Positions 428-43,262 of a stretch of DNA of 44,853 nucleotides are shown here, in pieces. A model generated the notes under the pieces. It was given only the letters and a program-made list of their open reading frames with translations. It was not told where the DNA came from and did not search any database. Positions within the stretch are counted from its first letter, which is position 1. Every line of letters begins with the position of its first letter. Made by a program: the position numbers and the translations under genes. Origin of the DNA: Candidatus Saccharimonadota bacterium (GTDB lineage: Bacteria; Patescibacteriota; Saccharimonadia; Saccharimonadales; JACOTW01); NCBI GenBank assembly GCA_016178135.1, contig JACOTW010000010.1, forward strand, positions 1 through 44,853, given 5' to 3'.

Positions 428-431
428 TCTT

Positions 432-594
432 TACTCGACTCACCCGAAACTCCTCCATCCCCAGACCGAATTCTATCGGCTGCAAACAGTTTTTCTTCTC
501 TCTATGTACCTTCAGGTACCTCTCCTTCAGACAAAACTGTTTTCGCTCGAGCTGATTCGTCCTGGGAACGAGGGATTTTGCGTAAGTCCAGTAG
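432..594. repeat. Family A palindromic element (intergenic copy)
   Basis: Starts tactcgactcacccgaaactcctcc and ends cgagggattttgcgtaagtccagta; same terminal and internal sequence as copies at 12016, 29455, 35272 and 40973. Confidence 0.85.
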
Positions 595-616
595 AGTCCC
601 TAAAATGTAAAGGTGA

Positions 617-812
617 TATAGCCCCCGCAAAACAAATTCCCGACTTTTCGAATCACCCTCTTTGGCCCAAAACCGCCTTTCCTCGTTCAACGTATCTAAG
701 GATATGTCTCTCTCGGAAAAGTCAGTTTTTGGCTCAAAGATCATTGCTTCAAAAACTTTGGCTCAAAGATCATTGCTTCAAAAACCCACGAATTTGTTTT
801 GCGGGGGCTATA
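617..812. repeat. Family B palindromic element (with internal tandem duplication)
   Basis: tatagcccccgcaaaacaaattc ... gaatttgttttgcgggggctata terminal inverted repeats; internal segment ttggctcaaagatcattgcttcaaaaac occurs twice in tandem. Confidence 0.9.
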
Positions 813-6420: not shown

Positions 6421-6875
6421 ATGAACGAACGCTTCGATAAATACGAATTTATGAGACCAGCCTCGTCGAGGAAGGCCACGGCAACAGCCCTAGTATTAGC
6501 CGGCCTAACCATGCCGGGAGTGTTTTTTGGATGGCTAAACGCCAGAAATGATGACGAAAGACTAAATCAGGCACGATTAGAACTAGCTACTACTCAACAG
6601 ACCTTATATGATCCTGCACTGTTCAATGAACAAGTGGAATTATAGTCCCCGCAAAACAAATTCGTGGGTTTTTGAAGCAATGATCTTTGAGTCAAAAACT
6701 GACTTTTCCGAGAGAGACATATCCTTAGATACGTTGAACGAGGAAAGGCGGTTTTGAGCCAAAGAGGGTGATTCGAAAAGTCGGGAATTTGTTTTGCGGG
6801 GGCTATAGCTGGCAAGATTCATGATGCTAAGCACAATGACGAATTATGGCAAGGCCCAGTCGTTGAGATGATCTG
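6421..6875 (+). pseudogene. Hypothetical protein gene interrupted by family B insertion
   Basis: ORF 6421-6645 (one TM) terminates at the TAG inside the B terminal repeat (TATAG). After the element the same frame resumes as AGKIHDAKHNDELWQGPVVEMIC before family A begins. Confidence 0.5.
6641..6807. repeat. Family B palindromic element
   Basis: tatagtccccgcaaaacaaattcgtggg ... tcgggaatttgttttgcgggggctata; near-identical to copy at 617-812 in opposite orientation. Confidence 0.92.
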
Positions 6876-12015: not shown

Positions 12016-12183
12016 TATACTGGACTTACGCAAAATCCCTCGTTCCCAGGGCGAATCAGCTCGAGCGAAAACAGTTTTGTCTGAAGGAGAGGTATCTGAA
12101 GGTACATCGATAGAGGAAAAACTGTTTGTAGCCGAGGTTAGTCGGTTTGGGGATGAGGGAGCTTTGCGATAGGTCCAGTATAC
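12016..12183. repeat. Family A palindromic element (intergenic copy)
   Basis: tatactggacttacgcaaaatccctcgttcccagggcgaatcagctcgag ... ggatgagggagctttgcgataggtccagtata. Confidence 0.92.
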
Positions 12184-18562: not shown

Positions 18563-18701
18563 TATAGTCCCCGCAAAACAAATTCGTGGGTTTTTGAAGC
18601 AATGATCTTTGAGCCAAAAACTGACTTTTCCGAGAGAGACATATCCTTAGATACGTTGAACGAGGAAAGGCGGTTTTGGGCCAAAGAGGGTGATTCGAAA
18701 A
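18563..18701. repeat. Family B palindromic element, truncated at right end
   Basis: tatagtccccgcaaaacaaattcgtgggtttttgaagc...ccaaagagggtgattcgaaaa then diverges before the right terminal repeat. Confidence 0.9.
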
Positions 18702-21174: not shown

Positions 21175-21261
21175 TGGTGGGGATGAGAGGACTTGAACCT
21201 CCACGAGATTACTCTCACTAGCTCCTGAAGCTAGCGCGTCTACCAATTCCGCCACATCCCC
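21175..21261 (-). tRNA. tRNA-Leu (CAG)
   Basis: Acceptor GGGGATG/catcccc, anticodon stem CTAGC/GCTAG with loop TTCAGGA, long variable arm, encoded CCA. Confidence 0.93.
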
Positions 21262-21390
21262 ATAGTAATGATTATAAGGTTCAAGAAATAAATTGAAAGG
21301 ACTTGGTCACGTTCCGCGACCCCGAAACTTCACTATTGGCAACAAGTTGCCATCGGAAGGTTTCCTTGCGAAGTGCCACAGGCACTTCTC

Positions 21391-21455
21391 ACCTCCACGA
21401 GATTGCTCTCACTAGCTCCTGAAGCTAGCGCGTCTACCAATTCCGCCACATCCCC
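21391..21455 (-). pseudogene. Truncated second copy of tRNA-Leu (CAG) lacking its 3' end
   Basis: acctccacgagattgctctcactagctcctgaagctagcgcgtctaccaattccgccacatcccc is almost identical to 21195-21261, but the 3' acceptor half is absent. Confidence 0.85.
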
Positions 21456-21492
21456 ATGTATCAGCCCAATATATTGTAATACGTCTGTGTGA

Positions 21493-23581: not shown

Positions 23582-23747
23582 TATACTGGACTTAAGCGAA
23601 ATCGCTTGTTCCCAAATTGAATCAGCTCGAATAAAAGCAGTTTTATCTGAAGAAGAGGTATCTGTAGATACATCGAAAGCAGAAAAACTGTTTGTAGCCG
23701 AGGCTAGTCGGTCTAGAGATAAGATAGCTTTGCGTGAGTCCATTATA
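23582..23747. repeat. Family A palindromic element (between secG and holin-like gene)
   Basis: tatactggacttaagcgaaatcgcttgttccc ... gatagctttgcgtgagtccatta. Confidence 0.88.
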
Positions 23748-25489: not shown

Positions 25490-27142
25490 TTAATTTAGGT
25501 ATCGGTGGAGAAGGGTTGCTTTGGTTTTACCTATAACTTGTTCTAAGGATAAGAGAGAGGCTTGTGTTAAGCCGTGCATACTACCAAAAGTTTTGAGGAG
25601 TTTTTTACGAGTGGCTGGACCAATACCTGGTATATCATCCAGTAAACTAGCAGTTGCACGTTTGGTTTTCAAGGTAGAGTGGTAGCTGACGACAAAACGA
25701 TGCGATTCGTCTCTAATACGCTGGAGTAGTTTTACCAAATTAGTATTATGCGGCAGATTTATCAGTACAAAATCACCAGATTCCGTCACAAAACCGTCCA
25801 ATTTATGGAGTGTTTTCGGATCTATTGTCACATTTGACGCATGTTTATTGATCACGATTTGCTCTTCGCGTTTAGCAAGACCAACCATAGGTACATCGCC
25901 AACTCCTCGTGCGTCGCGGGCTTTTATGGCCATTTCTAACTGACCCTTGCCACCATCTATAAGTATAAAGTTTGGTTTGGGCCATCTTTTTAGATTAGTT
26001 TCGCTAAAACGACGCTCGATTGTTTCATGCATATTATAAAAATCATTATTTTGGTCTTTTTTGGTTTTGAACTTACGATATTCGCTTTTGTTACTCGCCC
26101 CATTAGTAAACACCACCATGCTGGCCACCACATCCGTGCCGCTCATATGGCTGATGTCATAACCCTCAATCCGGCGCGGAAAGGCTTTTAAACCCAATAA
26201 ATCAACCAATTCATTGAGGGCGTGATCTTTGCTAATGTCCAGAAATTCTTTGTCACTAAATATTACTTGTTGATTCAGTCGTTTCAAGGCAAATAACTGA
26301 TTTCTTGTCTTCGCCGCCGCTTCAAACTGTGAAGTTTTGGCAAATTGTTTCATGTCTTTTTCTAATTCTTTTTCGATATTTTTACGCTTACCTTCAATAA
26401 CAGCTATCAAGCGTCGCAAATTTGCCCGATAATCTTCTAATGACGTTTTACCCTCCTCAAGCCCTGGGTCTAAACCTAAATGATAATGCAGTGTCGCTCG
26501 TTTTTGCCCAGGTGTCTGGCTAGTAGTAAATGGGAAAATTCGTCTCAAAAATTTGAGGGCCTGACGAACGCTTTGCGTACTTAAATATGGGCCAAAATAA
26601 TGCGCGCCATCGTCTAACGGACGGCGTGTAGTGGTGACAGTCGGGAAGTTGTCATCATAATTGATGCGAATATAAACCATCGATTTATCATCGCGAAGCA
26701 AAATATTATAGCGTGGCATATAACGCCGAACCATCTCGGCCTCCAAAAACAACGCCTCAAGCTCACTATCCACCACCATCCAATCGACATCAGCAATTTC
26801 GGCTATTAGGGCTTGGGTTTTTGGATCACGACTCCGACTTTTTTGAAAATATTGTCGTACACGATTTTTCAGAACCGCCGCCTTGCCCACGTAAATAATC
26901 TCGCCCTTGCTGTTTTTATGAAAGTAAACCCCGGGCGATTGGGGTAAGTTTTTTAATTTGGTGACCAAGCCTTTACTGGACTTACCCAAAATCGCCCGTT
27001 TCCGGAGTGAATTATCTCCAGCGAAAACTGTTTTATCTGAAGGAGAGGCACCTGAAGATACATCGGAAGAAGAAAAACTATTTGCAGCCGATAGAATTCG
27101 ATCTGGGGGTGGAGGAGTTTTGGGTAAGTTGAGTTTATGCAT
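25490..27142 (-). CDS. uvrC: Excinuclease ABC subunit C with repeat-encoded N-terminal segment
   Basis: GIY-YIG start LPQSPGVYFHKNSKGEIIYVGKAAVLKNRVRQYF, UvrC homology region and HhH end DDIPGIGPATRKKLLKTFGS. Residues ~6-55 are family A-encoded. Confidence 0.95.
   Translation of the reverse strand: MHKLNLPKTPPPPDRILSAANSFSSSDVSSGASPSDKTVFAGDNSLRKRAILGKSSKGLVTKLKNLPQSPGVYFHKNSKGEIIYVGKAAVLKNRVRQYFQKSRSRDPKTQALIAEIADVDWMVVDSELEALFLEAEMVRRYMPRYNILLRDDKSMVYIRINYDDNFPTVTTTRRPLDDGAHYFGPYLSTQSVRQALKFLRRIFPFTTSQTPGQKRATLHYHLGLDPGLEEGKTSLEDYRANLRRLIAVIEGKRKNIEKELEKDMKQFAKTSQFEAAAKTRNQLFALKRLNQQVIFSDKEFLDISKDHALNELVDLLGLKAFPRRIEGYDISHMSGTDVVASMVVFTNGASNKSEYRKFKTKKDQNNDFYNMHETIERRFSETNLKRWPKPNFILIDGGKGQLEMAIKARDARGVGDVPMVGLAKREEQIVINKHASNVTIDPKTLHKLDGFVTESGDFVLINLPHNTNLVKLLQRIRDESHRFVVSYHSTLKTKRATASLLDDIPGIGPATRKKLLKTFGSMHGLTQASLLSLEQVIGKTKATLLHRYLN
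26972..27134. repeat. Family A element inside the uvrC 5' coding region
   Basis: ttactggacttacccaaaatcgcccgtttccgg ... gggggtggaggagttttgggtaagttgagt. Confidence 0.85.
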
Positions 27143-28028: not shown

Positions 28029-29774
28029 TTAACGAAGCAATAACAAAGCAGCGATAACTACCCCAAATAATACAGCGATAATAATTATGGCAGGTGGCAA
28101 TGTTTGCGACCGTTGACTGGACTTAGGTGCAACGCCAAAACCATTGGCCCCATAAGCCGAGGGCATTGACTTGCTAGTGTTGTGCGGACTCTGGTTAGAG
28201 ATGGAACCATAGGCTGCATCATCGTTTTTATTGAACTCACGCGAAATCTCTCGTTCTTGGAGTAAACTGGACTTACCCAAAACCCCTCGTTCCCAGAGCG
28301 AATCAGATCGAGCAAAAACAGTTTTATCTGAAGGAGAGGTACCTGATTTACTGTGTCTTAAATGCTCCTGTGAATCTTGGCGATGTAAGCTATCAATTAG
28401 AATAGTTTCAAAACGATTACCGCTCAAAAATTCGCGCACTACACGTCTTAAGCCTATCGTATCAAGCCGACCCGCTTCATACATCTGTTTTACGCTAACA
28501 CCCCCTGATTCCATGTGTTTTGCCACCTCCAGAAGCTCAATCAAGGACATAGTTTCCGTCTTTTTAGGAGCTTCCTGGGCAGCTATCGGTAGCACCTCCA
28601 TTTTTGGCAACACCATTTTTGCCAACCTCTCCGCTTTTACTGGCAATCTATTTTCTGTCCGCTTTTCTTGTTTATTTTCACGATGCGTATCTAGCCGATC
28701 GGTCAATACCGGCCTAGCGATTCCCGGCTTATGTTTGATTGTGAGAGGGGCAAGTTTACGAATTTTTTCTTCGCGATCTGAAATACTAATCTGCAAGTTT
28801 TTTACTTCTTTGGTTAACTTTTCCTGAATGGGTAGCAATCGCTTTTCTGTTTTAATCCGCCCGCGGCGTCGACCAATTAAATAACCCACGATGCCGCCCG
28901 TCAAAACATCGCCGACTCTTTGATGACGTAACGGCAAGACCTTTGGGCTGGTATCCATGGCGTTTGGAGCTGGAGCTACAACATCTGACTCACTCAATAT
29001 CGAGATTGGAGGCACACCCAAACTTGACGGAGGTGCCGATGCGGAAACGGCGATCGGATTAACTGTAACTGGCCGATCATCTTCGGTTTCTTCGGCAATA
29101 TCAAGATCATTCATAGTATCTACCAAAATTTTATCGAGCAAATCTTCGTTAATTTCCTCATCACCATCCAAACCTTCCTGAATATTTTCCAGAAGCATAG
29201 CATTGGCTACGACGGCTGCCTCCTCCGGACTGTCCGGCTCTAATTGGTCAAGTTCCTGTTTTACATCTTCAGTTCTGGCTTGTACATATTGTTCTATGAC
29301 AAATCTTTGTTCGTTGTTCGTCAATTTCTCAAGATTTTTCGATTTGTCTTCTTGTTCTGATTGCTTACTAGACTCTTGCGCAATTTCCTCGTCATCATAT
29401 CTAATAACCTCGGTTACTTGAGTTGATTCACCTTGGAAACGAGGGGTTTTGGGTAGACTGGACTTACGCAAAGCTCCCCCATCCCCAGACCAATTCATCT
29501 CGGCTGGTAGCGGTCTGTCTTCTCTCGATGTAGCTATGGCTACCTCTCCTTCAGTCAAACCACTCCCAACTCGAGCTGATTTAGCCTGGGAACGGGCGAT
29601 TTTACGTAAGTCCAGTAGATCTTGCTTATCGTCTGTAACAATTTCAAAAATTGGTAATTTTTTGTTGGATTTTTTGTTCTTCTTGTCTTTTTTCTCGGCA
29701 ATATCAAAAAAACTCTCAAACGAACTCATCATTCGTTTATCGTTGTCCGAGTTATCGCTACCCGATATTTCCAT
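28029..29774 (-). CDS. Hypothetical protein with C-terminal TM, carrying family A insertions
   Basis: 581 aa; C-terminal ILPPAIIIIAVLFGVVIAALLLLR; contains LDLRKIARSQAKSARVGSG...GDGGALRKSSL and HSKSGTSPSDKTVFARSDSLWERGVLGKSS family A peptides. Confidence 0.75.
   Translation of the reverse strand: MEISGSDNSDNDKRMMSSFESFFDIAEKKDKKNKKSNKKLPIFEIVTDDKQDLLDLRKIARSQAKSARVGSGLTEGEVAIATSREDRPLPAEMNWSGDGGALRKSSLPKTPRFQGESTQVTEVIRYDDEEIAQESSKQSEQEDKSKNLEKLTNNEQRFVIEQYVQARTEDVKQELDQLEPDSPEEAAVVANAMLLENIQEGLDGDEEINEDLLDKILVDTMNDLDIAEETEDDRPVTVNPIAVSASAPPSSLGVPPISILSESDVVAPAPNAMDTSPKVLPLRHQRVGDVLTGGIVGYLIGRRRGRIKTEKRLLPIQEKLTKEVKNLQISISDREEKIRKLAPLTIKHKPGIARPVLTDRLDTHRENKQEKRTENRLPVKAERLAKMVLPKMEVLPIAAQEAPKKTETMSLIELLEVAKHMESGGVSVKQMYEAGRLDTIGLRRVVREFLSGNRFETILIDSLHRQDSQEHLRHSKSGTSPSDKTVFARSDSLWERGVLGKSSLLQEREISREFNKNDDAAYGSISNQSPHNTSKSMPSAYGANGFGVAPKSSQRSQTLPPAIIIIAVLFGVVIAALLLLR
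28263..28352. repeat. Half-length family A element in ORF 28029-29774
   Basis: aaactggacttacccaaaacccctcgttcccagagcgaatcagatcgagcaaaaacagttttatctgaaggagaggtacctga; only one arm present. Confidence 0.85.
29420..29454. repeat. Family A end fragment abutting a full copy
   Basis: gagttgattcaccttggaaacgaggggttttgggta resembles the family A terminus gctgattcgtcctgggaacgagggattttgcgta. Confidence 0.6.
29455..29620. repeat. Full-length family A element in ORF 28029-29774
   Basis: agactggacttacgcaaagctcccccatccccagaccaattcatctcgg...gggcgattttacgtaagtccagta; nearly identical to 35272-35440. Confidence 0.93.
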
Positions 29775-34608: not shown

Positions 34609-35241
34609 TTAGAAAAAATACCTGAAGATATTAACTGTAATTTCCCCAAAAGCAATTACCAAACCAATACCTGCCACACCCACTACGCATCCGAACAAAA
34701 ACAACAAAGAATCGCTAAAAATTAACCCGAGAGCAACTACTACGGCACCAAGCGAAGGGATAGTATCAAGACCTGAAAATGGTGGCGCCAAAAAAGCACT
34801 AAGTGCTAAAGTAAAAAAAATAGCACCAGCCAAGCGCGTAAAATAAAAATTATTAATAAGCCCTCTCAAACGTGGTCTGGAAAACTTCTCAAACCATTGA
34901 ATTCGATCAATCATAAACGGTATAGTTTTTTTTTGAAACATTTCTCCAAACTCCTTTTTGCGCCAACTTTTAGGCAACCACAAGGTTTTCATACCAACAA
35001 TCATCTCTAAACTTAAAAGCATGACAATAAGTTCAAATACGTGAGTCACACCTCCTGTTGGCAATGGCAATGCTGGTATGAACATGAGAAACAAAATAGC
35101 TACAGCAAAACCGCGTTCTTCAAAAATCATCTCCAACGAACCCAGTGTTTTTTTGTCATTATTATCAAGCCACTCTTTAAATTGCTGGCTAAAAAGTTGC
35201 TTAGAGCCTATGCTAGGTAGTTTCTTGGGTGTTGAACTCAT
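34609..35241 (-). CDS. ExoD-like exopolysaccharide synthesis membrane protein
   Basis: SLEMIFEERGFAVAILFLMFIPALPLPTGGVTHVFELIVMLLSLEMIVGMKTLWLPKSWRKKEF. Start placed at MSSTPKK; the longer ORF start lies in a family A element. Confidence 0.8.
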   Translation of the reverse strand: MSSTPKKLPSIGSKQLFSQQFKEWLDNNDKKTLGSLEMIFEERGFAVAILFLMFIPALPLPTGGVTHVFELIVMLLSLEMIVGMKTLWLPKSWRKKEFGEMFQKKTIPFMIDRIQWFEKFSRPRLRGLINNFYFTRLAGAIFFTLALSAFLAPPFSGLDTIPSLGAVVVALGLIFSDSLLFLFGCVVGVAGIGLVIAFGEITVNIFRYFF

Positions 35242-35271
35242 AAGCCCAGTGTAACAAACAATGGTCAATAA

Positions 35272-35440
35272 TATACCGGACCTACCCAAAGCTCCCCCAT
35301 CCCCAGACCAATTCATCTCGGCTGGTAGCGGTCTGTCTTCTCTCGATGTAGCTATGGCTACCTCTCCTTCAGTCAAACCACTCCCAACTCGAGCTGATTT
35401 AGCCTGGGAACGGGCGATTTTGCGACAGGTCCAGTATACG
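35272..35440. repeat. Family A palindromic element
   Basis: tataccggacctacccaaagctcccccatccccagaccaattcatctcgg...gggcgattttgcgacaggtccagtata. Confidence 0.93.
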
Positions 35441-36967: not shown

Positions 36968-37068
36968 GTAAACTGGACCTGTTGCAAAATCCCTCGTTCC
37001 CAAAGCGAATCAGCTCGAGCCGAGATTAGTCGGTCTGGAGATGGGGGAGCTTTGCGTCAGTCCAGTAA
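36968..37068. repeat. Internally deleted family A element overlapping the obgE 3' end
   Basis: aaactggacctgttgcaaaatccctcgttcccaaagcgaatcagctcgag joined to ccgagattagtcggtctggagatgggggagctttgcgtcagtccagta. Confidence 0.88.
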
Positions 37069-38486
37069 AACTCAATTTCTCCTAAGGATGGATTGCCAAA
37101 AATAATTTTGTCGTCTGTTTTTATACCTTGGCGAGTGAGCTCATGCATAATGCCCATTTTTTTCATAATATCACGTAGGCGCCGTACACCAGCCGAATTA
37201 GCAAAATCAGTTCTAGCGGCAAAACGTTCAATTTTTTTGCCGGTAATCTCATAACCTCGACTGATTTTTTTAACATGCCAAGCTTCTTCATTCTCAATCG
37301 TTAAAATTGGCAATGAACTGACCTCGTTAACCTCGTCAGGTTGTTTGGCGCGCTCCGTATCAACAATAGTTTTTAGCTTATACAATAATTCAGATATATT
37401 TTGTTTGCTCTGTGAAGATATAGCTACTACAGACACACCTTTGGGAAGAGCTTTTTTAAGTGTTTTGATATGATTAGCGACTATTTTGTCGTCAAGACCT
37501 TCAATTTTGGTCAATGCCACTATTCGTGGACGCTTTGATAAATCTATCTTGTAGGCTTTTAGCTCGCCTTCAACTATCTTGAACGATTCTACAATATCTT
37601 CATCATAAACGTCTATCAACTGTAGGAGCACGCCAGTTCGTTCCACGTGTCGTAAAAACTCGTCGCCCAGCCCTTTGCCTTGACTCGCCCCTTCTATGAG
37701 TCCCGGGATATCGGCAATCAATAGACTAGACTTATCGTCAATATCCACTACTCCTAGATTTGGAGTAAGTGTAGTGAATGGGTAGTTAGCAATTTCTGGC
37801 TTGGCATTACTAACGCTGGCCAAAAGAGTAGATTTACCGGCATTTGGTAGACCGATCAATCCAACATCGGCAATCATTTTCAGTTCTAATGTTACGGAAA
37901 ACTCCTGGCCCTTTTCGCCCTTTTCTGCTACTTGTGGTGCTTGACGAGTAGACGAAACAAAATGAGCGTTGCCAAATCCGCCCTTGCCACCCTTGGCCAA
38001 AATAACTTCTTGACCATCAACTGTCAAATCGGCCAATAGTTGGGCGTGTTCGTTTAAACTCGACTTACGCGAAATCTCTCGTTCTCGGTGTAAATCAGCT
38101 CCAACTAAGTCTGTTTTATCTGAAGAACTGTTAGCATTCGAGATTATTTGGTCTGGGGATGGGGGAGCTTTGCGTAAATCCAGTTTAGGTGATTTGAGCA
38201 TAACCGTCGTACCAACAGGTACCGCCACTCGCGTATCAGTGCCACTTCTACCATGTTTTTTTCTTTTGTCGCCAGGTTTGCCAGATTGAGCAATTAACTC
38301 TCTTTGATAACGAAAATTGGCAAGTGTGTTTTGATTGCGACTGGCTACGAATATGATATCGCCACCATCGCCACCATCGCCACCATCCGGTCCACCTAGA
38401 CGGATATATTTTTCATGACGAAAACTAACCCGCCCATCGCCACCACTACCGGCCTTTAATGTAACTTCTGCTTTATCCACAAACAT
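37026..38486 (-). CDS. obgE: GTPase Obg/CgtA with repeat-encoded insertion and C-terminal tail
   Basis: MFVDKAEVTLKAGSGGDGRVSFRHEKYI...GGPDGGDGGDGGDIIF, GLIGLPNAGKSTLLASVSNAKPEIANYPFTTLTPNLGVV. Insert LDLRKAPPSPDQIISNANSSSDKTDLVGADLHREREISRKSSL interrupts the Obg fold. Confidence 0.96.
   Translation of the reverse strand: MFVDKAEVTLKAGSGGDGRVSFRHEKYIRLGGPDGGDGGDGGDIIFVASRNQNTLANFRYQRELIAQSGKPGDKRKKHGRSGTDTRVAVPVGTTVMLKSPKLDLRKAPPSPDQIISNANSSSDKTDLVGADLHREREISRKSSLNEHAQLLADLTVDGQEVILAKGGKGGFGNAHFVSSTRQAPQVAEKGEKGQEFSVTLELKMIADVGLIGLPNAGKSTLLASVSNAKPEIANYPFTTLTPNLGVVDIDDKSSLLIADIPGLIEGASQGKGLGDEFLRHVERTGVLLQLIDVYDEDIVESFKIVEGELKAYKIDLSKRPRIVALTKIEGLDDKIVANHIKTLKKALPKGVSVVAISSQSKQNISELLYKLKTIVDTERAKQPDEVNEVSSLPILTIENEEAWHVKKISRGYEITGKKIERFAARTDFANSAGVRRLRDIMKKMGIMHELTRQGIKTDDKIIFGNPSLGEIEFYWTDAKLPHLQTD
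38056..38187. repeat. Shortened family A element inside obgE
   Basis: aaactcgacttacgcgaaatctctcgttctcgg...gagattatttggtctggggatgggggagctttgcgtaaatccagttta, ~132 bp. Confidence 0.88.
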
Positions 38487-39843: not shown

Positions 39844-40875
39844 TTAAGAGCATAGTTTTTTACAGTGCTTGACAGTTAGGGCTTCGTGTTCGGCTAGGGT
39901 ACGCGAAAAATATGTGATGCCGTCATCCCCTGCAACAAAATATAAATAATCGGTATTGCTGGGATTTGCCACTGCCGTAAGCGACGCCAAACTTACATTA
40001 CTAATTGGGCCTGGAGTTAATCCGACATGCAGATGAGTATTAAATGGCGAGTCATAAGTAAGTGAGGCATCTTTACCAGCAATTATTGAACCATAGAAAG
40101 CCGTAACGTCCGAGCCAAGCATCATGCCTTCTCGAAATCTCTTAATAAAGACCTGTGCTACAGTTGGCTTATCTTTGGGGTTATTAACCTCTTGATCGAC
40201 TATTGATGCTAGTATAACTCCTTCGTGAACAGTCAGGCCCTGCTTAATAATTCCAGCCCTTAGTTCAGGGGTCAAGTGTTTATTCATTTCATCCAACGAA
40301 GCTCGAATAATCGTTTCCACCTTGGTGCTATTTGTTTTCTGGAATGATTCCGGATATAAATAACCTTCTAGTGAAGCTTCTTTGGGTTTATTCGCCAGTG
40401 CTGGATGATCCAAATAAAGTGCAGGATTAAGTGCCAGGTCAACATTAGTCGCTGTAAATCCAGAATTAATTAGTGCTTGGCGAATCTGATCTAGGCGTTG
40501 ACCTGGCAAGATAGTTACCAGATCCGTTTTTATTTTGCCTTGAGAAATAATCGCCACAATCTCCTGAACGCTTTGATTGGATCGAAGCAAATATGTTCCA
40601 GCTTGTAACTTGTCGCGGATATTTTGAAAACGAACATACCATTCAAAGGCCCAGGTAGATTTAATAAGACCCTTGTCTTGAAGAATAGTGCCAATTTCTT
40701 TTATTCCAGTTCCAGATGGTATGGTGATCTGCTGAACGTGCTGGGAAGCATTCACCGGTTTCAGGTTTTCCAAATAAATATGTCGCGTTGCAAAAATTGC
40801 CCCGCCAAGTAAAACTACTAGGGTCAAGACAATAACTACTAGTGGTCTAAGCCATCGTTGACTAGATTTACGCAC
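39844..40875 (-). CDS. mltG: Endolytic murein transglycosylase MltG (YceG)
   Basis: TIPSGTGIKEIGTILQDKGLIKSTWAFEWYVRF, LEGYLYPESFQ, HEGVILASIVDQEV, DSPFNTHLHVGLTPGPISNVSLASLTAVANPSNTDYLYFV. Confidence 0.95.
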   Translation of the reverse strand: MRKSSQRWLRPLVVIVLTLVVLLGGAIFATRHIYLENLKPVNASQHVQQITIPSGTGIKEIGTILQDKGLIKSTWAFEWYVRFQNIRDKLQAGTYLLRSNQSVQEIVAIISQGKIKTDLVTILPGQRLDQIRQALINSGFTATNVDLALNPALYLDHPALANKPKEASLEGYLYPESFQKTNSTKVETIIRASLDEMNKHLTPELRAGIIKQGLTVHEGVILASIVDQEVNNPKDKPTVAQVFIKRFREGMMLGSDVTAFYGSIIAGKDASLTYDSPFNTHLHVGLTPGPISNVSLASLTAVANPSNTDYLYFVAGDDGITYFSRTLAEHEALTVKHCKKLCS

Positions 40876-40972
40876 AAATCCCTCTTTTCCGAAGCAAATC
40901 AGCTTGACACCAGTTTCGCAAAATCGTCCATTCCCAGAGTGAATTATCTCGAGCGAAAACTGTTTTCCCTAA
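40860..40972. repeat. Two partial family A arms in tandem
   Basis: actagatttacgcacaaatccctcttttccgaagcaaatcagctt and cgcaaaatcgtccattcccagagtgaattatctcgagcgaaaactgtttt, followed by a full copy. Confidence 0.75.
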
Positions 40973-41587
40973 ACTGGACTTACGCAAAATCGCCCGTTCC
41001 CAGGCTAAATCAGCTCGAGTTGGGAGTGGTTTGGCTGAAGGAGAGGGAGTCGTAGCTACATCGAGAGAAGGCAGACCGCTATCAGCCGAGATTAGTTGGT
41101 CTGGGGATGGGGGAGCTTTGCGTAAGTCCAGTAAAGTAATATAGCCCCCGCAAAACAAATTCGGGGGTTTTGGAGCCGATGATCTTCGAGTCAAAAACTG
41201 GCTTTTCCGAGGGAAGCATATCATTAGATAAGGTGAGTGAGGAAAGACAGCTTTTGGTTCGGCCTTTAGAGAGGTCAGTGCTTCGTCTTGTAAGTAAATG
41301 TCTTTTTGAGTTTTTTGGCCCAAATTTTCGGCAAACTTTCGCACAATTTTTGTTTGGCCGGTATCTTGCCCGTCCAGGCCTCGTGGTAGCCCAACAATAA
41401 TAGTTTGCACTTGTTCTTTTACGCACAATTCTTCCAGATAGTCCCAAATTTTTTCATCATTTAATACCGTGTCATAGGGATGTGCCAAACGAGCCACGCT
41501 ACTAGCAATAGCCACTCCAATACGTACATTGCCAATATCAAGGGCCACAAATTTATGGATTGCTGGTGCCATTTGAGCTGTTGTCAT
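40868..41587 (-). CDS. ruvX: RuvX/YqgF Holliday junction resolvase-like, native 3' part replaced by repeat-encoded sequence
   Basis: FVALDIGNVRIGVAIASSVARLAHPYDTVL, TIIVGLPRGLDGQDTGQTKIVRKFAENL, IYLQDEALTSLKAE; thereafter translation follows family B, family A and further A fragments. Confidence 0.8.
   Translation of the reverse strand: MTTAQMAPAIHKFVALDIGNVRIGVAIASSVARLAHPYDTVLNDEKIWDYLEELCVKEQVQTIIVGLPRGLDGQDTGQTKIVRKFAENLGQKTQKDIYLQDEALTSLKAEPKAVFPHSPYLMICFPRKSQFLTRRSSAPKPPNLFCGGYITLLDLRKAPPSPDQLISADSGLPSLDVATTPSPSAKPLPTRADLAWERAILRKSSLGKTVFARDNSLWEWTILRNWCQADLLRKRGICA
40973..41133. repeat. Full-length family A element within the ruvX 3' region
   Basis: actggacttacgcaaaatcgcccgttcccaggctaaatcagctcgag...gatgggggagctttgcgtaagtccagta. 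Confidence 0.93.
41139..41258. repeat. Truncated family B element within the ruvX 3' region
   Basis: tatagcccccgcaaaacaaattcgggggttttggagccgatgatcttcgagtcaaaaactggcttttccgag...gaggaaagacagcttttggttc; right terminal repeat missing. Confidence 0.85.
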
Positions 41588-43262
41588 TATTAACCTGTTC
41601 AAACGTAATTGTTATTTTGCCGGTTTGCTTTGGCATTTTGTAGACCCAAAATGGGCTGTAATTTATAGTAACTTCTTTTACGCCCGGACGACTACCGATT
41701 ATATTCTGGGCTTCACCTTTTTTCTTGCCAGCTATAGCCTTTTTAATACCGGTAACGTCTGATTGTACGCCAGCCACGACTTCAGTTTGCAACAAAAATC
41801 TTACATCACCGTTAGCCTGCTTATTAACATCTCTGAAAACCGTCGCATCAAGACCGTTGTCAAGAATTTTTTGTTTCTTAGTGTCTATATGGCCCTTGGA
41901 GTCTTCTTCTATTAGTTGTTTGACGGCATCGAGTTTTACTCCCGTCATAACATAACTGACCGTAACACTGACATTCACTTCTGTTGCCTGATCACCAACA
42001 CTAGGTGCGGAAGTAACTACCGGAGCGCCGACCGTCAAAGTATCAGGTAACGCCAGATAACCTTCGGCTACTAGTAATTTAGAAACCTCGGCCTTACTGG
42101 TCTGTAGATTCTGATCCAAGATTTTCTGCTTGGCACTATCCAGGTCCGCTTGGCTTACGACTTTAACAATATTGCTAGTACCGCCACTCATGGCCGAGCC
42201 TTTACCAGTCATGGTCGGAAAATTGGACACAGCATAATCCCTTGCACTCAAGTTATAGCTATCACCGCCATTTTGAGCCATAACGACAACCGATGCAGAT
42301 TGTTTATTTGCCTGACAAGTATCGCCAGTGTAGCTACTCGGCTCAACGTCAACTGCTTCGGTGGTAATAAAATTCTTGCTACCAGAAGATATAGTGGTTC
42401 CAGCAGGTACAGTTCTAACAATATCTCCGAGTTTATCAGTCTTATTGCAGTTAATGAATTTCACGGTACCAGAGGCCTTGGTACCTAAGTCTTTTTCGCC
42501 TGTCGCCATCGCTTTTATGGCATCGGTTTTTTTATATTCTTTAGTAATTGCAGGGACAATTTTTTGCTGTTTGTCGAGTTCTTTGGCTGCCGAACTGGCT
42601 GTCATCGTCAAACTAGCCGCGTAACTGGTAGTATAAGTTTTTATAACAATCCTGGCACTGGGCATGACAAAAAAGGCAAAATACCAAAATACAATAAGCC
42701 CGACTAATAAAATGCTACCTAGAATTAGTTTTGTGCGGAATTTGTCAAAATTCGGGATTTTGAATTTCTTGTTCTTTTTCGGTTTGGTGGTTTTTGGTAG
42801 TTTTTCTTCGGGCTCCAAATCATCATTGTCAAACTCAATAGTTTCATCTTCTGGCTGACGAGACAAGCTAGCCAATTCACCAATTGGCCTTGTATTATCA
42901 ATACTGGTGCCAGTTGCTTCTTCTGGGCCAACATCTTCGCTAACCGTCAGTGGTGTGCTGTCAGGCATAGATGGCGAGGGTGGAATTGCTGGCTTAGTTT
43001 GCAATGTCCTGGCAACATGCACGCCTACCGCACCAGCTAGGGGTAAAATACCGGTTTCCGACGTAATCAGTACGATGTGTTTTTTGGCCGTATCACCCGT
43101 ACGTTTCAATAATCGCATATTTACAATGCTCTGCAATACGGTGGCCCGCTTTGGTAAAACTAGTGCTACGATCCTGTGCGAACTACCACGCACCTTATCT
43201 ATAATGCTGGTAATTTCATCGTCAAGATCAATATAAATAGTGTCTTTTGGCTGTTCAGCCAT
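41553..43262 (-). CDS. Hypothetical membrane protein, baseplate-J-like repeat region
   Basis: 570 aa; central TM ILGSILLVGLIVFWYFAFFVM, long extracellular part with KATGTVKFIN-like motif (GTKASGTVKFINCNKTDKLGDIVRTVPAGTTISSGSKNFITTE). Confidence 0.75.
   Translation of the reverse strand: MAEQPKDTIYIDLDDEITSIIDKVRGSSHRIVALVLPKRATVLQSIVNMRLLKRTGDTAKKHIVLITSETGILPLAGAVGVHVARTLQTKPAIPPSPSMPDSTPLTVSEDVGPEEATGTSIDNTRPIGELASLSRQPEDETIEFDNDDLEPEEKLPKTTKPKKNKKFKIPNFDKFRTKLILGSILLVGLIVFWYFAFFVMPSARIVIKTYTTSYAASLTMTASSAAKELDKQQKIVPAITKEYKKTDAIKAMATGEKDLGTKASGTVKFINCNKTDKLGDIVRTVPAGTTISSGSKNFITTEAVDVEPSSYTGDTCQANKQSASVVVMAQNGGDSYNLSARDYAVSNFPTMTGKGSAMSGGTSNIVKVVSQADLDSAKQKILDQNLQTSKAEVSKLLVAEGYLALPDTLTVGAPVVTSAPSVGDQATEVNVSVTVSYVMTGVKLDAVKQLIEEDSKGHIDTKKQKILDNGLDATVFRDVNKQANGDVRFLLQTEVVAGVQSDVTGIKKAIAGKKKGEAQNIIGSRPGVKEVTINYSPFWVYKMPKQTGKITITFEQVNNDNSSNGTSNP

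What the first reader, a model, noticed from the sequence alone, without database searches (positions are those of the whole stretch)
617..812. Family B: second palindromic element with ~23 bp terminal inverted repeats
Copies at 617, 6641, 18563 and 41139 share TATAGCCCCCGCAAAACAAATTC ends. The two arms are related to each other (TTTTCGAATCACCCTCTTTGGCCCAAAACCGCC versus TTTTTGAAGCAATGATCTTTGAGCCAAAAACTGAC), so the element is a long imperfect hairpin. The 617 copy has a 28-bp internal tandem duplication. Two copies (18563, 41139) retain one end but lack the other.
Basis: seen in the sequence. Interest (0 to 1): 0.72.

Follow-up and report, generated by a model that had tools for sequence, protein, structure and literature searches.

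The report
Tiny jumping hairpins inside bacterial genes
The repeat is a 167-base non-coding jumping element, about 65 copies of which sit in one very small bacterial genome; it belongs to an apparently undescribed, patchily spread family whose folded centre is conserved while its ends change, and some copies are read straight through as extra protein inside genes.

Summary
Genome-wide: 90 terminal-repeat hits in about 65 places; 21 copies are exactly 167 bp. The element is an IS630-type MITE: the same 23-bp end flanks IS630-family transposase genes in two other Patescibacteria MAGs, and removing 165 bp (leaving one TA) restores uninterrupted paralogous sites, so the target duplication is TA. 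No IS630 transposase was found in the assembled genome. The centre does not come from the IS loci tested; it is a conserved, strongly covarying hairpin. Here the element is stop-free in three of six frames and adds exactly 55 codons; copies are fused in frame to DHH, Doc, VanY-like and RnpA genes, and a family A copy splits Obg in frame. This resembles Rickettsia palindromic elements, with a visible transposition signature. One-ended copies cluster at 137-143 bp, like the contig ends, and are mostly an assembly limit.

The parts
617..812 (-). B1 copy, 196 bp = 167 + 29-bp internal duplication, both TIRs (617-639, 790-812)
728..785 (-). 29-bp tandem duplication TTTGGCTCAAAGATCATTGCTTCAAAAAC x2
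   Evidence: family D10
6641..6807 (+). B1 copy, 167 bp, both TIRs (6641-6663, 6785-6807)
6718..6733 (+). conserved centre CATATCCTTAGATACG (hairpin tip)
18563..18701 (+). B1 copy, first 139 bp only; probably cut by the assembly
41140..41257 (+). B2-subfamily copy, first 118 bp, fused in frame to the 3' part of ruvX
12037..12158 (+). family A copy found by the model built from B and relatives
   Evidence: E 9.8e-9
23631..23699 (+). family A copy (central part)
   Evidence: E 1.6e-8
29477..29598 (-). family A copy inside ORF 28029-29774
35295..35416 (-). family A copy overlapping the N-terminal part of ORF 34609-35376
457..570 (-). family A copy next to the 617 B copy
37026..38486 (-). Obg GTPase gene with a family A insert read in frame (residues about 96-147)
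40868..41602 (-). ruvX/yqgF reading frame whose C-terminal part is B2 + A sequence

Best explanation
B is a non-autonomous DNA transposon (MITE) moved by an IS630/Tc1-mariner-type transposase that recognises the TATAGYCCCCGCAAAACAAATTC ends and inserts at TA with TA duplication. Shown: ends, copy number, TIR shared with IS630 elements elsewhere, TA duplication at paralogous empty sites. Inferred: actual movement, and a transposase supplied in trans (now lost, in the missing few per cent of the assembly, or on another replicon or cell). B is one branch of an order-wide and patchily phylum-wide superfamily of elements, mostly about 160-168 bp, whose covarying hairpin centre is conserved while the ends diverge. 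In this genome the amplified branches became stop-free in three of six frames and add 165 bp (55 codons), so copies landing in genes can be read through, as Rickettsia palindromic elements are.
For: 90 TIR hits in the own genome, control 0; 21 copies exactly 167 bp. Same TIR beside IS630-type transposase genes in L107 and L109, 20-23 of 23 identical at all ends; an order member (G206) has a complete 1,100-bp IS630 with TIR TATAGCTCTCCCAAAACAAAACCTGC, 21-22 of 26 identical to two other members of the superfamily. 6 of 25 flank joins (one TA kept) align across the junction to other places (e.g. C8:114674, 94% over 80 bp). Covariation: 20 of 34 pairs changed on both sides, score 0.472 against 0.208 shuffled and at most 0.174 slid; 30 matches from the order: 0.739 against 0.215. 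51 of 392 genomes of the order, 6 genomes outside the class. Open frames: fwd0 18/21, rev0 19/21, rev1 21/21. In-frame genes.
Against: No DDE_3 or related transposase in the own genome, and a DDE_3 match in only 2 of 25 relatives checked, so the mobiliser is not shown. Most B copies are intergenic or at gene ends; the mid-domain example (Obg) is family A, and the mid-gene B case (nadD) involves a cut copy. B1/B2 differences are spread over codon positions (7, 8, 11), so selection on the peptide is not shown.
Confidence: 0.86

Rival explanations
1. The conserved hairpin centre is a functional module (structured RNA or single-stranded DNA substrate) that spreads by acquiring ends recognised by different transposases; mobility is secondary to, or depends on, the hairpin.
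For: Centre conserved and covarying across elements with unrelated ends; length held near 160-168 bp; centre absent from the three IS630-bearing loci tested.
Against: Palindromes of mobile elements can keep pairing for reasons of transposition or gene conversion; no conserved gene neighbour was looked for; no expression data.
Confidence: 0.3
2. A stationary regulatory repeat or transcription terminator in conserved context.
For: Hairpin; some copies lie at gene ends.
Against: No terminator-like or promoter-like calls inside the copies scanned; both orientations; near-identical copies inside genes and inside other repeats.
Confidence: 0.03
3. One-ended copies are a real form (one-ended transposition or a nuclease cut 28 bp from the end).
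For: 23 internal copies end 137-143 bp from the TATAG end.
Against: The same length in both orientations and both subfamilies; 10 of 28 contig ends lie in B, 8 of them at 136-148 bp; nadD halves flank such a copy but are out of frame unless bases are missing at the junction.
Confidence: 0.1

Closest known systems
Rickettsia palindromic elements (RPE)
   Same: About 100-150 bp palindromes with open frames, found in frame in conserved genes (PMC2229807, PMC10969869)
   Different: RPE target duplication is listed as unknown (PMC2229807); here TA duplication and an IS630 TIR; other host group; centre conserved order-wide
RUP / IS630-Spn1 and Correia (CREE/NEMIS)
   Same: Short TA-inserted MITEs; RUP shares TIRs with IS630-Spn1 (PMC2229807)
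   Different: RUP is described as intergenic and the 155-bp Correia as having stops in all frames (PMC2229807); a conserved centre with changing ends was not described in the papers read
YPAL / RU-2 of Yersinia (168 bp, 56-aa frame)
   Same: Almost the same length; open frame fused to host genes (PMC2229807)
   Different: Listed without TA termini (PMC2229807)
IS630 family insertion sequences
   Same: TIR and TA target
   Different: B carries no transposase; its centre is not found in the IS loci tested

Membership tests
IS630-type MITE | short, no transposase gene, many dispersed near-identical copies with TIRs | tested here: met
IS630-type MITE | TIR shared with an IS630-family element | tested here: met
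IS630-type MITE | TA target-site duplication | tested here: met
   paralogous empty sites
IS630-type MITE | autonomous partner in the same genome (usual, not required) | tested here: not met
   assembly 96.7% complete
IS630-type MITE | mobilised by the transposase | not testable with these tools
   needs an assay
Rickettsia palindromic element (works like) | palindrome with an open frame lying in frame in conserved genes | tested here: met
   reading frames and domains; Obg 1-95 and 148-465 align to solved Obg 1-94 and 100-407 (family A); translation itself not tested
Rickettsia palindromic element (membership) | sequence relation to RPE families | not tested
   RPE sequences not compared
Rfam structured RNA | match to a curated family | tested here: not met
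Transcription terminator | stem followed by a T run | tested here: not met

The most novel reading that the evidence does not exclude
A widely spread parasitic hairpin module of Patescibacteria-type genomes keeps its folded centre for its own function (RNA or single-stranded DNA) while swapping the transposase-recognised ends, and in one lineage has evolved stop-free versions that are tolerated inside essential genes.
Probability: 0.35. Interest if true: 0.8.

Novelty: new variant of a known kind. Interest (0 to 1): 0.63.

Why it matters
Gene-embedded palindromes are best known from Rickettsia, where the target duplication is listed as unknown. Here the same gene-insertion behaviour comes with a readable transposition signature (IS630 ends, TA duplication) and with relatives full of stop codons in sister genomes, so the step from intergenic MITE to gene-tolerated insert can be compared directly. 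It also shows that very small genomes can carry a heavy MITE load that splits contigs and adds peptides to core proteins such as Obg.

Tried and rejected
First attempts to orient loci failed (fixed: all loci are + strand). Viral contigs: no match to the TIR and no relative of the transposase. Protein-level selection on the element's frame: B1/B2 codon positions 7, 8, 11 give no support. IS630 interior as the source of the centre: no significant match. Literature searches found no description of such elements in Patescibacteria or Saccharibacteria; subscription journals and preprints are largely not held. Structure prediction was not used: no question here depended on it.

Full report
Observation. 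The 23-bp end occurs six times in the window with 0.00 expected. The 617 copy carries a 29-bp tandem duplication. The 18563 and 41140 copies show only one end.

Genome-wide. The window is contig C9 of an 800-kb, 14-contig, 96.7%-complete genome. The end pattern occurs 90 times, control 0, in 65 places; 25 have both ends, 21 of these exactly 167 bp. Two subfamilies exist, B1 and B2, whose consensus sequences differ at 26 of 167 positions.

Mobility. The exact end was found in three named genomes, annotated as Patescibacteria group bacteria and Candidatus Kuenenbacteria. In two of them (L107, L109) it is the left end of an about 1.1-kb element with a right end of the same kind and an IS630-type transposase (DDE_3 E 2.8e-22 for L107); in L109 the transposase reading frame is split into two pieces. 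B and IS ends agree at 20-23 of 23 positions. Joining the flanks of two-ended copies with one TA gives sequences that align across the junction to other repeats for 6 of 25 copies, so insertion is at TA with TA duplication and a net gain of 165 bp = 55 codons. No IS630 transposase was found in the own genome, and only 2 of 25 relatives checked had a DDE_3 match.

The centre. A 70-bp central query found relatives with other ends in other families of the order; several are again 166-167 bp long. Eleven diverse centres align well; the consensus hairpin has 20 of 34 pairs with changes on both sides, and all measures exceed the shuffled and slid controls. A covariance model finds matches in 51 of 392 genomes of the order and 42 of 156 genera, and in 6 genomes outside the class (one, G448, with 9 matches). 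Only nine candidates per genome were scored, so counts are lower bounds. Thirty aligned matches from the order give a covariation score of 0.739 against 0.215; that alignment was fitted to the model, so the slid controls (at most 0.204) are the fairer comparison. The ends vary greatly among members. The centre does not occur in the IS630-bearing loci tested.

Families A and B are one. The model, built without A, finds A copies in the window at E 9.8e-9 to 3.7e-7. G448, in another class, has elements with A-type ends (ACTGGACTTACGCAAA).

In genes. The 167-bp copies are open in fwd0 18/21, rev0 19/21 and rev1 21/21; three or more open frames arise in about 2-3% of random sequences. In the 24 relatives of the order examined, none has three open frames and most have none. 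B copies fused in frame include a DHH phosphoesterase and Doc near the N-terminus, and VanY-like and RnpA at the C-terminus (the RnpA copy is one-ended). The Doc copy is 191 bp; its 24-bp duplication keeps the frame. A family A copy splits Obg in frame: query 1-95 and 148-465 align to solved Obg 1-94 and 100-407. The window's ruvX reading frame loses its C-terminal part to B2 and A sequence. These are reading-frame results; translation is inferred.

One-ended copies. 23 of 30 internal one-ended copies end 137-143 bp from the TATAG end, in both orientations and both subfamilies; 10 of 28 contig ends lie in B, 8 of them at 136-148 bp. Names of other MAGs found here contain 'k141'; a k-mer or read length near 140-150 would produce this (inference; the assembler of this genome is not known). 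In nadD both halves of the gene flank such a copy in frames that do not match unless bases are missing at the junction. The 41140 copy (118 bp) does not fit this length and may be a real deletion.

Known relatives. RPEs share the gene-insertion behaviour, RUP shares the IS630 link, and YPAL shares the length (PMC2229807, PMC10969869). None of the papers found describes a family with a conserved centre and changing ends, or such elements in Patescibacteria.

Noticed in passing
window 430-596, 12016-12168, 23582-23734, 26972-27124, 29454-29616, 35272-35435, 40970-41132: Family A (ends TACTGGACTTACGC) is even more abundant: 40 places scored out of 170 candidates genome-wide; copies lie in frame in Obg, a UvrC-like gene and others.
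   Followed up: partly
G000 C8:101315, C8:128068, C12:9747 flanks: A third repeat family (TATATAGGACTTTYGCAC...) into which B has inserted.
   Followed up: no
window 21197-21263 and 21391-21457: 67-bp sequence repeated at 99% identity; the first copy is part of a tRNA gene match (21178-21261).
   Followed up: no
G000 contigs C11 start and C14 end: Two different family A copies carry B at the same internal position (...TTTAGAGCTAAT|TATAG).
   Followed up: no
L113 (G181 C15:15612-15706): 95-bp element with B-like ends but a short centre.
   Followed up: no
G000 C8:131077: Copy with an internal deletion that keeps only the last 13 bases of the right end.
   Followed up: no
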